Shown here one piece after another: positions 49,770 to 62,085 of a DNA stretch of 64,000 bases (position 1 is the stretch's first letter; every line of letters begins with the position of its first letter). The notes beneath the pieces are model-generated. The model did no database searches. It was not told where the DNA came from and saw only the letters and a program-made list of their open reading frames with translations. The position numbers and the translations under genes were made by a program. The stretch spans positions 33,790,001 to 33,854,000 of the forward strand of contig OX485804.1 in NCBI GenBank assembly GCA_950295325.1. Reading direction: 5' to 3'. Source of the stretch: Polytrichum commune. Its lineage: Eukaryota > Streptophyta > Polytrichopsida > Polytrichales > Polytrichaceae.

Positions 49770-50270
49770 GGTTGCTTATCTTATCTACATTAAGGTTGCA
49801 GATACTCCCAGTAACACGGCTTTCAATCTGCGGACGTGCCGCTCAAATCCCTCCTCAAATCGGACAATCTCCTCCTTAGAGCCAAAGGCCGGTTGGGGTC
49901 TATCCCCAGAACCGGTAACTATTTTGTCAAGAACCGATTGCCAGCCGTCGTTACTATGCCCTCCTGCATACTCCACAAGCAGACCAAGGGGTGCAACCTC
50001 GACGAGGAACCGCACCTTTGCCCTCGTGCTCGGGGAAGCCACTTTCATAAACCTACCTCTCTCCTTGGCATCCTGATCTGGTTGACATCCGGCACCATGC
50101 CCCCAGTGTATCGCAAAGCGTACTTCTCTCTCACGTATTGTCAAATTAAGTCATCATATTCCGGGTTGTCGAAGGTAGCCCTCATGATTCCCGGAGAGAG
50201 ATCCTTTCCCTCTTTGATGGAGGTGATTTATTTCACATTTGACCACTTTCCATCGTCCATCAACAGAAAC
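49770..50270 (-). pseudogene. Tandem 3' fragment of the SBPase gene
   Basis: About 500 bp duplicates the last about 155 codons and first about 20 bp of 3' flank of the SBPase gene, directly downstream of it and in the same orientation; the same landmark TAAGGTTGCAGATACTCCC lies at 49791 and 50291, exactly 500 bp apart. The upstream boundary falls within the codons for the FLLMEDGKW segment, after which sequence switches to the gene's own 3' flank, so the fragment has no promoter or 5' part. The open frame is interrupted near its 5' end by a frame change around 50140. Substitutions are scattered, so the copy is diverged. It ends with the same style of stop (TAG). Confidence 0.85.
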
Positions 50271-50284
50271 TTGGTTATCTTATT

Positions 50285-51499
50285 CTACTTTAAGGTTGCA
50301 GATACTCCCAGTAACTCGGCTTTCAATCTAGACGTGCCGCTCAAAGCCTCCTCAAATCGGACAATCTCCTCCTTAGAGCCAAAGGCCGCTTGAGTTCTAT
50401 CCCCAGTACTGGTAACCAATTTGTCGAGAACCGATTGCCAGCCATCGCTACTATGCCCTCCTGCATTCTCCACAAGCAGACCAAGTGGTGCAACCTCAAT
50501 AAGCAGCCGCAGCTTCGCCTTTGTAGTCGGAGAAATCACATTCATAAACACGCCCCTCTCCTTGGCAATGATCTGGTTGACATCCGGAACCATGCCACCG
50601 GTGTAACGCAAAGTATACCTCTCTCTCACATAGTGTCGAATCAGGTCATCATATTCCGGGTTGTCGAAGGTAGCCCTTAGGTTCCCCGGGGAGAAGAGCT
50701 TGCCTTCTTTGATGACGGTGGTTTCTTTCACATGTGACCACTTACCATCTTCCATCAACAGAAACTCATGTGTACCGGGAAAACCCTTAATGGCTATGAC
50801 ATAAGTGGTTCGTGGACCGTAAACCCCCATAGCCGCAGCAACCTGGTCACGGCCCGTGACTCCTGTGAGCTTGTCCCCTGGCCAGACACCGAAAATGGTC
50901 CCCACCGTGATATTTGCATCTACAACACTGGAGCCATCCAAAGGATCGAATGCAACACTAAATCCATCTGATGGCCCTCCGGAGTCAACAAGCTCAGCTT
51001 CCTCCTCCGAACATGCGAACTTGCACACATGGGAGAAATGCAAGGCTTGCAAGAGAACCTGGTTAGCAAGCATGTCTACCTCAAGCTGTTGGTCACCGAA
51101 TGTGTTCATGCATGCTGTGGCTCCGTAGGACGCTGTGCGGATCTTGAAGGCTATGGTGCGGATGGCCTCCCCCATACATACCAGCAATCTCCCTAACCTT
51201 TCATCATGTGCTGTGGCCTTCGCCAAAAACTCCTCCAAGCTGTCTCCGAGTGCCGCTTCAAACCTTGTGGAGGTTTTAGCAATCCTTCTTGATGTCTGCA
51301 TGATGCTGCACTTCTTGTGTGTCGATCGCACAACGGCAACGTGACCAGTGTAATTGCCTGCAGGCATGTGAGTGCCATACAATGAGCTCGATGGACAACC
51401 CCCTAATGCCAAATTTCGATGGCAAACTCCAGCACGACTTCTCTGCGACGCAAGAACTCTAATTTTGACCTGCGAGGCTAAGCTCAAGGAATTTGCCAT
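50285..51499 (-). CDS. SBPASE: Sedoheptulose-1,7-bisphosphatase, chloroplast, intronless, altered redox cysteine
   Basis: Calvin-Benson enzyme that hydrolyses sedoheptulose-1,7-bisphosphate to regenerate RuBP in the chloroplast stroma. A single uninterrupted exon of 404 aa from ATG at 51499; an upstream ATG at 51559 would add 20 residues, but the [10 protein letters not shown] start gives a better transit-peptide leader. Mature-domain landmarks: [31 protein letters not shown] (metal-site Glu pair), [13 protein letters not shown] (about 184-196), [27 protein letters not shown] and FEVAPLGLL-like [15 protein letters not shown]. These separate it from FBPase. Known plant SBPases carry a CGGTAC thioredoxin-target pair after RTAS; here the segment reads YGATAC, so the first Cys is Tyr (codon 51125-51127) and the second is kept. 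Plant SBPase genes usually have several introns, so a retrocopy is possible. A partial tandem copy follows downstream. Confidence 0.93.
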
Positions 51500-54400
51500 G
51501 GAGCTGCTCCCAGGTGCGTGTACCACAATTGCCACCATATCTTCTTTATATCCCTGCACTGATCGAAATTTGGCTAAATTTTCCTCCAGGAGCAGAGTTT
51601 CAGAGCAGAGAGGAAAGCGACGTTGTTAGCCATCTACACTGAGATTTCCTACATAAGAATTTATATAGCTACAGCTACTGTGACTTGTGCAATGATCTTC
51701 GGAGAGGTGAACAGTTAGAGAGGCAGCAATATCCAAGGAAGTTACCCAATTCTCAGTACACCGGAATATTGGGGAGAGGAATGGAATCCGTGGGACTTGA
51801 TTAATCAATGGTTTGTGCACTGATTTCTTTCGAGTATTTATACTCAATGATACTTCTACTACCTCCAAAAATGAATAAATGAAGCTGCCATGACCAATTG
51901 CATGACCTGATTTCGGTGGCATGTCACAGTTATTCCGATGTGCTTTGGTAAGCAGCTGATGCCAAAACAACATGTGGATTTATACGGTCCAAAATACTCG
52001 TTGGGATACTGATTCTCCTCGCTCCTTGTGAGGTGCAGGAGTTTGGCACAGGAATCAAAGCTAGCTACCTCACCCATTGCTCATCCCATTTTCAAGCTTC
52101 TTGCTGTTCATGCGACTTTCTTGCAAACAGTGTTTGATGTTGTGACTTGATCCTCGGTTACTTACTTATATCCAACAAATTCACCTGTTTTGTATTCCAA
52201 TAGGTTCTGTGTATCGCATATTGAGCGATGCAGAGTCCTATGAGTTCTACAAATATGTCTAGATGGTATTACTTTGCAAGCACAAATTTTGTTGGAATTC
52301 GATGAGTCTGAGGTAGCTCAAACTGAAAGGTCTCAAAGTGACCTTAAGCATTCTAGATGAGTAGATGAACAACCACGTGATTGGTGTTCCAATTTCTTGA
52401 CCTGAAGCGTCAAGAGACTACAAATGTACCAATTTACATTTCAATTAAGAGGCTTGGGGTGAGAGGAAGATCGTCAACTTATGTGACTTCCTTATCTATG
52501 ATTGAGTGGAGAGCCTTTCTAAAACTTCTTTGTCTATCTTGATTATCCTGTCTATCACAATTTCTAACAATTTTGCTAACACAAATATGATTTCTTATGG
52601 ATACAGTTATATCAAAGAAAGAGTAAGTTTGTCATCCATGCACTCATGATAAGTTGTCCTCTTTACATTGTGGCCTCTCCAATCCAAAACCTTTCAAGTG
52701 TTGTTTGTTGGGGAAAACAACATTTGACTTGCATTCTAACCTTGCTCACTAGATTCAAAAATCTCTCATAGTTTCCACTTGTGCCATGTAAACCTTCTTC
52801 GTTGTTCTGGACAATTTTATTAATGTGTTTGCCTTTTGGCAAACCGGTTAATCCTAACGAGTCATATACAAAGTTATGATGTAGCATGCTTATCATATAT
52901 GTCAACTCTCAAGCTCTTCACCACGTGCTAATAACTTAGATTGTCTATCTCTAGGTGAAGAAATTTATCATTTGCTTTTAAAGTGATCACCAAGCTTGAG
53001 TTCCATAACCAATCGCTCATCCAAGTGGAGGGTACTTCCAACAACTCTCTTGTGCTTTTTCTTGGCATATAGAGGACATTTCATCCATATATTTTAATAT
53101 ACATCCATGAGTAGAATGATTATGTCCCATAATGGGCAAGAGCCAATGAATGTCTTGTTGCTATCGCAACATGTCCACAAGGATTTAGGTTACAAGTATA
53201 GAGACTTTTATGTACCTATAAATTCTTCAAATGTCAAAAATTTTGAATCAAAACCATAGTTTGATTTGCTATTTTGGACTACCTTACAAGATTAAGCCCA
53301 ACTTAAGGCATGTGACCATGATGTGTGGGAACCCTTCATCCACATGAAAAAGTGAAATTGAACTTTGTGTGGTCAATTGTCTCCAAGTGTAGTATAAAGA
53401 CAAATGTGACAGGTTGTCAACCAAATGCTATTCAGTACCATCCTATTCGTGTGGATCCTTCCACAACATAAATTACAAAATATTCAATGGTTTTAAGACT
53501 TTGAAGTCTCATGGTCACCCAATTTTGTGTTACACTTACCTCTTTGCGAGATCTAATAGACCGTGAAACATTATACATTACATGCCATGTAGGACACCGT
53601 GTAGATTTTCCACCCATGCAATCCTATTTGGTCTCTTAGGCCCTCAAGCTTTAACCTCTACTGTAGTGTGTAAAGTGAGAAGGATAGTCTCGGCCAATGA
53701 GAGATTTTAGGTTTCATTGGTCACGGGCCCTCAAGCTCCAGCGTAAAGTGCCCCTGTAACTTACAAGGCCAGCGTGATACCGACATTGCCGATTTTAGGA
53801 CGAGAATCCATGACTGAGTTAAGGAACGGTCTTAGGGTGGGTTTTGGCATGGCAAACGTGTCCGTCGGATCCACATCGACGGTCTCGATGGCTGTTGCAC
53901 GGAATTGCAGTCGTCTTCAAAGCTACGCAGAGTGTAGCGCCCTTGCTTAATCCGTGTGCACTCTTTTCGGATCTCCATCATCGTTCGGACCATTTCCCCC
54001 TCGTTAGTAATAATACCTCTGGTGCATGCTCTACGGCCGAGGCCAAACCCATTGCATCGTCGGAAGAGCAGACGCTTCTGCTGTAAGTATTCACCTCGTA
54101 AGTTTGGGCCACCTGCTGACATTAATATTGTAAGTGACTCGCTGCACGAATTGGTATCGTTTGTGAGAGATGTTATTTAAGAAGGAAAAATCGCTATGTA
54201 TCTCCTGTCTTTTATATCGTCGTAGTGTCCTAATTTTCACCACTTGCTGACGTCCAGACTGGCCGCACTTTTCAACTTTATAATCTGAAAGTAGCGACTC
54301 CATTCGTCGCCATTACAAGATTTCGGGCTGAGACTCGGTCTGTTCTCACTTTCAACACCCATTTATATATGATCCATACTGCTCATGTATGTAATGATCG

Positions 54401-57871: not shown

Positions 57872-60253
57872 ATGCATTGGGCACTGACTAAAAAATGTTG
57901 CAACTGCCACTGTGACGATCCTCCAATCAAAGTACCGAAGAAAACGAGAGACCGCAATGTCATTTATTCTCTCTCTCCCGAGGTGCAGCACTACATTTTG
58001 CTGGCTTTCAAGGTTATCCGTGGAACTTTGATTCGTCTTGGCCCTTATCTTTTCGTTCAGTAGCTGCTCTTGTTTCCACTACGTATATTTAAAAGTTCTC
58101 TCTAGAGTCTCTGAGTTTGTGTCAGTGGGAACACTATACCATAACCACGAAGGTCTGCAACAGGATCTAAATGTAGTATTCCATCTCTTGAATGATTCAC
58201 TGCAAAGGTAACGGTCATATTTCTTGACAAGATAACTCCATGGAAACAGAAGCTCAAATTTCTGTCGCCTTTGCCAATCTCGTATATGTTGCATACTTGC
58301 TTAATGTGAAGGTTTCAAAGAAATTCTTCATTTAAGTTGCGGTTGCACTTGGTAAAAAATTAGAAAGATCATTCGATTTTTATGTGTAATTTTTTGATAT
58401 ACCAGGCGGACTTTCCACTGTTGTCGCCAAAAGAAGGCGTGACCTGCGTACGGGCTTTCTACGGCACCGAAGACCCCTTATCGGCGCAGAAATGGCTCGC
58501 AAACTTTATACACTGGGCTGACCAGCACAACCTCTCCACCATGAACATGCTGAAGTACGCCGTCACTGCATTGTTTGGGGATGCACGTGATTGGTTCCAG
58601 GGCTTAGGAGAAGTAGCGACATGGAGGGATTTCTGGTTTCTCTTCCGAGAGAAGTTCCTCCAGGAAACTGCGATTTGGACAGGTACTATTGTATTGGACC
58701 TTCTTCAAACAAAAACAAAACAAAAAAAAAAAAAACAGTCTTGCAATCTGTGTTAACATCCTATACATCCATCCAATTAGTCATAACCAACATTTTGTTC
58801 ATGGTCTTGCGGATTTCTATGACTCTCATTCTACATTTAAAATAGCTAACACGCTGTCCGATGCAGGAACCAGGTGTAACCCATACCGCTTATATTTTAG
58901 CGCGACTGTGAAGGATAAGATAAGTCAAGTAGGCATCGGAGGAATGCTTTGGAGCCCCACCGGAGGGTTCAAGTGGCACCTTGTGAGCCAATCCCTTAAT
59001 CTGGAGGAATTTAAGCAACTGGCAACCTATGAAGCTCTCATCGCCGGCCTGAACGCCGCGTTTAACCTTGGTGTGCGTCACATCATTGCTTGCGGTCAGC
59101 CCGAGGATCTCACCAGAATCATTACTGAGGTACACACACATCTCAGGTCCAGTAAATCTTTCAAAATCAGGCGTTCAAACATACAGTCCTCTAACACACA
59201 GTTCCGAATCAAGAACATAAGTGTTGCGAGTTCGTGCTTATTCTCCGGGTGCTATAATGCCTAGCACTCTTTGGTCACAATCCAAGTGTCACTCCACCTC
59301 GGATGTTGTGTCTACTACTGTGTGAGTAAATTAAACAATTCTGTCCACCAACTCTAGTTATGGAGCCATTTTTGTGTGGCTCTGCTCCACGTAATGCCTT
59401 AAGCAGACAAGAACAACATTTATCTTGAATCACGAACTATTGCAACATCCATGCATTAATATCCAATAATAATGATGAGGTTCATATTTCTGCAATGCAT
59501 CCTTAGCGAGAAATGGTGGAAGTGAGATGTATGCTTCATTGATTTTTGTCCAGTTTCATATTTGAACAAAATTTCTACCTCACTCCACCTGTGTGAGTAA
59601 ATCGAACAATCACGTCTGGAAACTCTAGTGTATGGAGCGAATTTCTTGACTCTGCTCCTCGTAGTGCTTTAAGCAAACAACAACAGTAGTTATCTTGAAT
59701 CAAAGAATATTGGAACATTCATGAACCGTCGCTAGTCAGAGATGGCTAGTATTCACCAAATACTATGGAGAGAGTCCTTTTTCTGCTAACCCGTCCTGCA
59801 ATGCATCTTCAGCAAATAATGGTGGAAGTGATGTCTGCGCAGGTACACGAGTGCTGTCTGATGGACCACCACGCTCCGCACACCAAAACCCTCGACCAGC
59901 GGTTCAAACGAGTCCTTCACCTCAACCGGCGATTCCACTCGCTCCAATTCCGGGCGACCAAGAGCTGCCGCAATGCCGTCGCGAGCAACCTCGCCACCCG
60001 AGGTCTCAACAGATGGTTAGCGAACAACTGCGAGGCTGGCGACAAGGAGCGGCGAAGAAAAGCTCGCTTCCACGTACATTACAAACAGCACGAGTCCACG
60101 CGGCGATGTCGCGAATGGGAGAAGCTCTTCCTCAAGAAATTCCGCTTCGGGAGCATGGCCATGGCCAGGGCCAAGTGCCACTTGGAGGATTGCGCGCCGT
60201 TCCCAAACTGCGCTGGGAACTGCGCGGCCGCTCTTCGGCTGAAAGCCGCGTGA
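57872..60253 (+). CDS. Spliced gene with retrotransposon Gag-like and degraded RNase H domains
   Basis: Four candidate exons, 57872-58012, 58406-58682, 58867-59129 and 59843-60253, join in phase at GT-AG sites without a stop, giving 363 aa. Exon 2 is a Ty3/gypsy-type Gag segment (AFYGTEDPLSAQKWLANF, then a WFQGLGE and W..FWFLFREKF pattern). Exon 3 and the start of exon 4 form an RNase H fold of the plant RVT_3 type (YRLYFSATV, GGMLWSPTGGF, LATYEALIAGLNAAF). Three of four catalytic acids are replaced: Ser at about 151, Gln at about 217 and Ser at about 275; only Glu 195 remains. Exon 4 then adds a basic, Cys-containing GC-rich tail (KERRRKARFHVHYKQ; CREWEKLF). Protease, reverse transcriptase and integrase are absent. 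Exon 1 (CCNCHCDD) is the weakest part. This reads as a domesticated or chimeric gene, but a decaying retroelement with chance splice sites remains possible. Confidence 0.6.
59280..59842 (+). repeat. Tandem duplication within intron 3 of the Gag-RNase H gene
   Basis: Two copies of about 265-280 bp start near 59280 and 59575. Shared stretches are TGTGTGAGTAAAT, CTCTAGT.TATGGAGC, TTATCTTGAATCA and CTGCAATGCATC. The second copy ends in the acceptor TCTGCGCAG of exon 4; the matching end of copy 1 (near 59535) lacks a usable CAG. Confidence 0.6.
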
Positions 60254-60714
60254 ATGGCCGTCCCCAAGCGCCACAGTTTGTTTGCAACTGCTGCTGCTGT
60301 CTCTTTGGCTCAATGTCACGTGAACTGCTGAACCGCCATAGTGAACGTAACCGTTTGGCGTCTGGTGGCGTTCAAGGACTGGGGACGACGATGATTTATT
60401 CTAAACCCTAATCTTCGTTCTCCACCGTCCTTGATCTAAACGGTAGATCTTCATGATCGGAGGGTTTAGAGTAGATGGCGTCCAAAATGGTTATGGTTTG
60501 TAATCCTCCTCGGGTATCTTGGCCATTAGAGGACTACACTAATTATCCTAATTAGTGAGGGTGGTACTAATTCCCAAAGCATGCACCATTTGAAATTTTT
60601 ACAGAGCAACACTTCAAATCATGAGTACGTGCTCATTTATCATAGATTTCAAGGAAATTGGTGCGTGCTTTACAGTGTTTGAAGAGTGATAAAAGAAAAT
60701 TTTAATGGGGACAC
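60254..60714. other. Downstream of the Gag-RNase H gene
   Basis: GC-rich 3' flank to about 60410, then AT-rich sequence. A frame overlapping exon 4 in another phase (59851-60411) is a GC-driven shadow. Nothing else was recognised. Confidence 0.4.
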
Positions 60715-60890: not shown

Positions 60891-62085
60891 ACAATGATAA
60901 AATGTGCTTACTGGAATTAATCATGATTTAAAATACCAGTAGATTAAATCATGATTAATTCCAGTAAGTATATTTTATCATTAAGTAGGCTTGATTGATT
61001 TGGTAAGCATGCTTTCTGATTTAATTGGGCTCAATTAGAATTGATCAAGATTAATTTGACCTAACTACATTCAATCACACTTAATTAGTTTAAATGCATA
61101 TGAAAACTTTGTGAAAGTAGAAGGTATTAACTAAACTATTTTAATATTTAACATACTAGAAATAAATCACTAATTTTAGTTTCATCTTAGAATGACAACA
61201 TGATTAAATCCAGTAAGTATATTTCATCATTAATGAGGCTTAATTAATTTGGTTAGCATGCTTTCTGATTTAATTGGGCTCAATTAGAATTAATCAAAAT
61301 TAATTAGACTTATTTCCATTCAATCCCACTTAATTAGTTTAAATGCATATGAAAACTTTGTGAAAGTAGAAGGTATTAACTAAAATATTTTAATATTTAG
61401 CATACTAGAAATAAATCACTAATTTTAGTTCCATTTTAGAATGACAACATGATTAAATCCAGTAAGTACATTTTATCATCAATGCGGCTTAATTAATTTG
61501 GTAAGCATGCTTTCTCATTTAATTGGGCTCAATTAGAATTAATCAGGATTAATTAGACTTAATTACATTCAATCACACTTAATTAGTTTAAACGCATATG
61601 AAAACTTTGTGAAAGTAGAGGGTTGTAACTAAAATATCTTAATATTTAACATACTAGAAATAAATCACTAATTTTAGTTTCATTTTAGAATGACAAAGAA
61701 CCTTGCAATGGTAAGTCACAAAAATTATAACCTCGGTTCTAATGAGGATTTTGTAATATTTTGACTTCCAAATTAATTACATGCTTTATTGACAGTTTCA
61801 CTTTGAAAATAAAATCCTAATTAATTGCTTGTTGACTCAATGGAAGTGAACATATATATTGGATTTTGGACCGTGAAGGTGAAGTGCACTCAATGTGAGA
61901 TTTGTGGATAAGTGGCCTTCAAGAATGCAAGGGCAATGGTTTTTTCAAAGTCGGGCGGGAAGGCAATAGTTTTCGGTCGGGTCCTGAAAATCTGGATTTT
62001 TTGAACGGGCGGCCGCCCCTGCCCGAATCTACTCCCCCTATAAGTTCATGGGGGCACTTTAACGTCCCCCGCCAACTTTGGGTAA
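60891..62085 (+). mobile_element. Dispersed AT-rich element, copy 2, with internal triplication
   Basis: It opens with a 39 bp inverted repeat (60893-60931 and 60944-60982, 12 bp loop, core CTGGAATTAATCATGATTTAA, given as CTGGAATTAATC and ATGATTTAA). A roughly 248 bp subunit beginning GATTAA..CCAGTAAGTA follows three times (about 60953, 61203 and 61451). The remainder to about 62085 aligns with the element at 25070-25650 in the same order. It has no ORF of transposon type and so is non-autonomous. Confidence 0.7.

What the first reader, a model, noticed from the sequence alone, without database searches (positions are those of the whole stretch)
57872..60253. Domesticated Gag plus RNase H fusion gene with a dead nuclease site
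Four exons join in phase at canonical splice sites to give 363 aa with a Ty3/gypsy Gag-like segment and an RNase H fold but no protease, reverse transcriptase or integrase. Three of the four RNase H catalytic acids are replaced (Ser 151, Gln 217, Ser 275), while the fold-defining YEAL segment is kept. A basic, Cys-containing tail follows. Loss of catalysis with an open frame across introns is what a co-opted binding protein would look like; possible roles are RNA or DNA binding or retroelement restraint.
Basis: partly seen in the sequence, partly recalled or inferred. Interest (0 to 1): 0.75.

Follow-up and report, generated by a model that had tools for sequence, protein, structure and literature searches.

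The report
Moss half-capsid, dead RNase H fusion
A plant (probably a moss) carries a small, old family of four host genes that join half of a retrotransposon shell protein to a broken copy of the cell's own RNase H enzyme; such a protein can no longer cut RNA but could still grip retrotransposon shells and nucleic acid, so it may restrain mobile elements.

Summary
Four exons join in frame at canonical splice sites to give 363 aa. The first half is a Ty3/gypsy capsid N-lobe; it finds Drosophila Arc1 capsid in the PDB at E 5e-6 from the single sequence. The second half is a type 1 RNase H domain, above Pfam's RVT_3 cut-off. Two corrections. Second, the RNase H half is not a leftover of retroelement Pol. 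Its exon 3/4 intron sits at the same codon and phase as in the genome's own RNase H1 gene, whereas the Tat retroelement RNase H is intronless. It is not a lone decaying insertion. Three paralogues on other chromosomes carry the same capsid-lobe exon, phase-1 intron and degenerate RNase H. They are 34-39% identical in the capsid exon, with synonymous sites near saturation and dN far lower. No retroelement copy is closer. So this is an old chimeric host gene family under purifying selection. Best guess at mechanism (inferred): a non-cutting adaptor that binds retroelement capsids through the N-lobe and nucleic acid through the RNase H fold. Orthologues and transcripts could not be tested.

The parts
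57872..58012 (+). Exon 1, residues 1-47: Cys-rich start, then a YSLSP segment
   Evidence: Open frame, GT donor; YSLSP lines up with the YSLSP/YALS stretch just before the capsid lobe in the paralogues, where no intron interrupts (shuffle p 0.05 against L013 only)
58013..58405 (+). Intron 1, phase 0, found only in this member
   Evidence: GT..AG; paralogue homology runs on across it
58406..58682 (+). Exon 2: capsid N-lobe (about residues 60-132, 58442-58660)
   Evidence: PDB hit to Arc1 capsid, E 5.1e-6 alone and 2.6e-6 as profile; three paralogues at E 2e-13 to 3e-10; only open frame and best codon score of six
58683..58866 (+). Intron 2, phase 1, shared by all four family members
   Evidence: donor after W-x-G and acceptor before G-S/T..P in all four
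58867..59129 (+). Exon 3: first part of degenerate RNase H domain; S151 (58899-58901), T193 (59025-59027), Q217 (59097-59099) at three catalytic positions
   Evidence: RVT_3; alignment; only frame without a stop, joint best codon score
59130..59842 (+). Intron 3, phase 0, same place as in the host RNase H1 gene
   Evidence: identical position in L012, L013, L014, L034, L035, L036, L038 and L037 (RNase H1 with hybrid-binding domain)
59843..60028 (+). Exon 4, first part: end of RNase H domain; S275 (59984-59986) at the fourth catalytic position
   Evidence: RVT_3 match reaches profile position 122 of 123; weak match to paralogues, 14-25% identity
60029..60253 (+). Exon 4, last part: basic Cys-containing tail; coding status unsure
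   Evidence: Paralogue tails look different; other frames also open in this GC-rich stretch

Best explanation
This is one of four members of an old, intron-containing host gene family that fuses a Ty3/gypsy-derived capsid N-lobe to a degenerate RNase H domain of the host RNase H1 lineage. Shown: architecture, shared introns, loss of the active site, constraint on both domains across paralogues. Inferred: it works without cutting. The N-lobe, which lacks the C-lobe and zinc knuckle needed to build a particle, binds capsid proteins of Ty3/gypsy elements, and the RNase H fold binds RNA:DNA hybrid or structured RNA. Together they would cap or misload retroelement particles or occupy their reverse-transcription intermediates, giving restraint. 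I give about 0.85 to the structural and evolutionary part and about 0.35 to the restraint mechanism.
For: Capsid N-lobe match with real gags as yardstick; RNase H fold. Three paralogues with the same exon order and identical phase-1 intron, a closed set of four by reciprocal search. Exon 3/4 intron identical to host RNase H1. No member keeps DEDD: S/T/Q/S, N/E/I/A, D/K/E/S, S/E/D/Q. In pairs with this gene dN is 0.61-0.71 and dS 2.8 or saturated. DNA single copy, no LTR-like repeats around it, while the genome is full of possible target elements (at least 150 gag loci, many with long open frames). Precedent: mammalian RTL8, an N-lobe-only gene, binds the N-lobe of PEG10 capsid and lowers its particles (PMC11684626); engineered Gag-RNase HI fusions with this same order block retroviruses (PMC5035972).
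Against: No transcript or orthologue evidence could be obtained. Nothing shows binding to capsid or nucleic acid. The N-lobe is far from every retroelement gag sampled in the genome, which weakens direct co-assembly with present elements. The dead site removes the nuclease step that makes engineered fusions potent. The RNase H domain of this member has a long branch, so its fold may be drifting.
Confidence: 0.5

Rival explanations
1. Host adaptor unrelated to retroelements: the N-lobe has become a peptide- or partner-binding module (as in Arc) and the RNase H fold a nucleic-acid-binding platform, for example in R-loop or RNA metabolism.
For: Family is old and far from all present gags; a capsid N-lobe can bind host peptides (Arc, general knowledge); RNase H lineage is cellular.
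Against: No evidence of partners; catalytic loss differs in each paralogue, which fits relaxed constraint as well as a new role.
Confidence: 0.3
2. Retroelement-derived gene as a whole: a shortened Tat element whose own additional RNase H and gag were retained after deletion.
For: Mosses carry Tat elements with an RNase H ORF just upstream of gag (PMC10508981), and such elements are in this genome (L039, L019, L020, L021).
Against: Order is reversed (RNase H then gag in Tat); Tat RNase H has no intron, whereas this gene shares one with host RNase H1 at the same codon and phase; Tat gag is a poor match (hhalign probability 9%); holding the RNase H of both groups together costs 6.2 log units, p-AU 0.087.
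Confidence: 0.07
3. Recently silenced or decaying copy: the family was functional but this member is a pseudogene in the making, with a dead and fast-drifting RNase H.
For: Longest branch in the RNase H tree (2.16); exon 4 poorly conserved; tail without support.
Against: No stop or frameshift in 363 codons despite that divergence; splice sites intact; capsid exon as constrained as in the paralogues.
Confidence: 0.13

Closest known systems
Half-capsid domesticated genes of mammals (RTL8, RTL6 of the SIRH/RTL family; PMC11011659)
   Same: Ty3/gypsy capsid N-lobe kept, C-lobe lost, small multigene family, host-retained
   Different: Plant not mammal, no sign of a shared origin, several introns, fused to an RNase H domain
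Arc (Drosophila Arc1, mammalian Arc)
   Same: Capsid N-lobe homologous to Drosophila Arc1
   Different: Arc has both lobes and builds particles; no RNase H
Plant RNase H1 (HBD + RNase H), here L037
   Same: RNase H domain of the same class and an intron at the same codon and phase
   Different: RNase H1 has a hybrid-binding domain in front and keeps catalytic residues at the three positions read; here a capsid lobe is in front and the site is dead
Tat B LTR retrotransposons of mosses (structure #4, RNase H upstream of gag; PMC10508981)
   Same: Gag and an archaeal-type RNase H in one element
   Different: Reverse order, no introns in the RNase H, pol genes present, intact DEDD, distant gag
Engineered capsid-targeted inactivation proteins (Gag-RNase HI; PMC5035972)
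   Same: Capsid part followed by RNase H
   Different: Man-made, whole Gag, active nuclease
Yeast retroelement-derived restriction factors (Ty1 p22, PMC4599808; domesticated factor against Ty1', PMC10951436)
   Same: Gag-derived protein that restrains retrotransposons
   Different: From Ty1 elements, no RNase H named in the abstracts; restraint not tested here

Membership tests
Domesticated Ty3/gypsy Gag (half-capsid) gene | Homology to Ty3/gypsy capsid N-lobe | tested here: met
   PDB search E 5.1e-6 (single) and 2.6e-6 (profile) to Arc1 capsid
Domesticated Ty3/gypsy Gag (half-capsid) gene | Not part of a mobile element (no LTRs, no pol, single copy) | tested here: met
   Pfam scan of the gene shows no protease, RT or integrase
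Domesticated Ty3/gypsy Gag (half-capsid) gene | Retained under purifying selection | tested here: met
   Against paralogues only: dN 0.61-0.71, dS 2.8 or saturated
Domesticated Ty3/gypsy Gag (half-capsid) gene | Orthologues in related species | not testable with these tools
   No other plant genomes are held
Active type 1 RNase H | RNase H fold | tested here: met
   By sequence: RVT_3 33.7 bits; family profile to PDB RNases H E 1e-13
Active type 1 RNase H | DEDD catalytic acids | tested here: not met
   S151, T193, Q217, S275
Host RNase H1 lineage | Intron at the same codon and phase in the RNase H domain | tested here: met
   L037 with Cauli_VI domain
Tat LTR retrotransposon | Tat order (RNase H upstream of gag in mosses), pol genes, LTRs | tested here: not met
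Capsid-forming Gag | Capsid C-lobe and zinc knuckle | tested here: not met
   Exon 2 ends about 8 residues after the N-lobe match and the RNase H domain follows
Retroelement restriction factor | Lowers retrotransposition | not testable with these tools
   Needs gene removal or co-expression

The most novel reading that the evidence does not exclude
A natural counterpart of capsid-targeted inactivation: a land-plant gene family in which a capsid N-lobe delivers a non-cutting RNase H fold into Ty3/gypsy particles and blocks reverse transcription by occupying RNA:DNA hybrids.
Probability: 0.22. Interest if true: 0.87.

Novelty: new variant of a known kind. Interest (0 to 1): 0.62.

Why it matters
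Domesticated capsid genes are well known in animals; my paper searches turned up none in plants, and no description of a capsid lobe fused to an RNase H. If the family is real in other mosses, it gives a compact test of whether plants, like mammals and yeast, turn gag fragments against retroelements, and whether a dead RNase H can act as a hybrid-binding module. It also shows how a retroelement exon can be joined to a host gene and then multiply.

Tried and rejected
Fold of the capsid exon from the single sequence was poor (mean pLDDT 59.5) and its structure comparison uninformative; it shows only an all-helical model. Exon 1 alone finds nothing else in the genome. The neighbouring SET gene has relatives on C2, C3, C6 and C7, none near the paralogues, so it gives no sign of shared block duplication. 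Recent insertion rejected. Tat origin of the RNase H half disfavoured. Paper searches for a plant gag + RNase H fusion gave nothing.

Full report
What was checked. The four exons at 57872-58012, 58406-58682, 58867-59129 and 59843-60253 join in frame with GT..AG at every intron and give 363 aa and a stop. Codon statistics and stops favour the proposed frame for exons 2 and 3 (only frame without a stop; best or joint best score of six), are neutral for exon 1 and do not support the last ~75 codons, where other frames are open too.

Capsid half. Pfam alone is weak: Retrotrans_gag 9.2 bits for this member, and Ty3_capsid at E 0.012-0.17, over the same N-terminal part of the model, for the three paralogues. 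The decisive result is an unbiased sequence search of the PDB. Exon 2 alone finds Drosophila Arc1 capsid at E 5.1e-6 over residues 60-132, and the profile of the four paralogues at 2.6e-6. As a yardstick, two undoubted gag proteins of the same genome reach only 0.024 and 0.0013. The match covers the N-lobe only. The RNase H domain follows directly, so the C-lobe and zinc knuckle are missing.

RNase H half. RVT_3 matches at 33.7 bits, above the 21.6 cut-off, and runs across the exon 3/4 junction. The four-member profile finds type 1 RNases H in the PDB at E 1e-13. The alignment puts S151, T193, Q217 and S275 at the four catalytic positions. The paralogues read N/E/I/A (L012), D/K/E/S (L013) and S/E/D/Q (L014): none keeps the set. 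A free-standing relative, L034, keeps D/E/D/D.

Family. Searching the genome (407.8 Mb; seven large contigs hold nearly all of it) with the capsid exon gives three clear others: C6:27.04 Mb (L012), C1:59.67 Mb (L013) and C5:15.23 Mb (L014), at E 2e-13 to 3e-10; the next match is at E 0.8. Reciprocal searches return the same four, plus one chance-level match at E 0.6. Each has an RNase H exon downstream, and the intron between the two halves is phase 1 at the same place in all four. The first intron is particular to this member; in the others the YSLSP-like stretch and the capsid lobe lie in one exon.

Where the RNase H came from. The intron between exons 3 and 4 is phase 0 at exactly the same codon in the four fusion genes, in four free-standing RNase H-like genes (L034, L035, L036, L038) and in L037, which has the RNase H1 N-terminal hybrid-binding domain in front and so is taken as the host RNase H1. 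[quoted passage not shown]), but theirs is intronless. Holding the fusion family together with the Tat RNase H costs 6.2 log units, p-AU 0.087: not a rejection, so the intron is the main argument. The simplest history (inference) is capture of a capsid-lobe exon by a host RNase H-like gene, followed by DNA-level duplication.

Selection and copy number. Pairs with this gene show dN 0.61-0.71 and dS 2.8 or saturated, and third positions differ more than first and second (Fisher p 0.035 to 5e-5). The test rests on protein-guided alignments and averages over the time since duplication; it does not isolate this member's own branch, which is long in the RNase H tree (2.16). The DNA of the capsid exon is single copy, no LTR-like repeats flank the gene, and no retroelement gag is closer than the paralogues although at least 150 gag loci exist.

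How it may work. Shown: architecture, dead active site, constraint. Inferred: a half-capsid without C-lobe should not build particles, but N-lobe-only RTL8 enters PEG10 particles, binds the PEG10 N-lobe and lowers particle number (PMC11684626). Engineered Gag-RNase HI fusions in this very order inhibit retroviruses through nuclease activity (PMC5035972). The protein here lacks that activity, so if it restrains elements it must do so by binding. A host-only adaptor role is the main rival.

Limits. No other plant genome, transcript or protein database was available, so orthologues, expression and taxonomic spread are untested.

Noticed in passing
L039:3062-5201 (C1:44.46 Mb); also L019, L020, L021: LTR retroelements with an archaeal-type RNase H ORF (DEDD intact in L039, L019 and L020) directly upstream of gag, matching moss Tat B 'structure #4' of PMC10508981.
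   Followed up: partly
L034 (C2:63.85 Mb), L035 (C1:26.44 Mb), L036 (C4:18.18 Mb), L038 (C1:63.50 Mb): Free-standing intron-containing RNase H-like genes without a detected capsid lobe, with graded loss of the catalytic acids (L034 intact, L038 D/K/D/D, L036 D/D/D/A, L035 D/K/N/D).
   Followed up: partly
window 49788-50150 and 50288-51625, minus strand: An FBPase gene with a partial tandem copy of its C-terminal domain just downstream.
   Followed up: partly
window 60943-61696: Three tandem copies of a 249-base unit, 91% alike, just downstream of the gene.
   Followed up: no
window 59318-59358 and 59589-59629: A 41-base stretch repeated at 78% identity inside intron 3, spacing 271.
   Followed up: no
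window 59725-60411 and 60017-60400: Long overlapping open frames on both strands over exon 4, from its high G+C content; a warning against trusting the tail by openness alone.
   Followed up: yes
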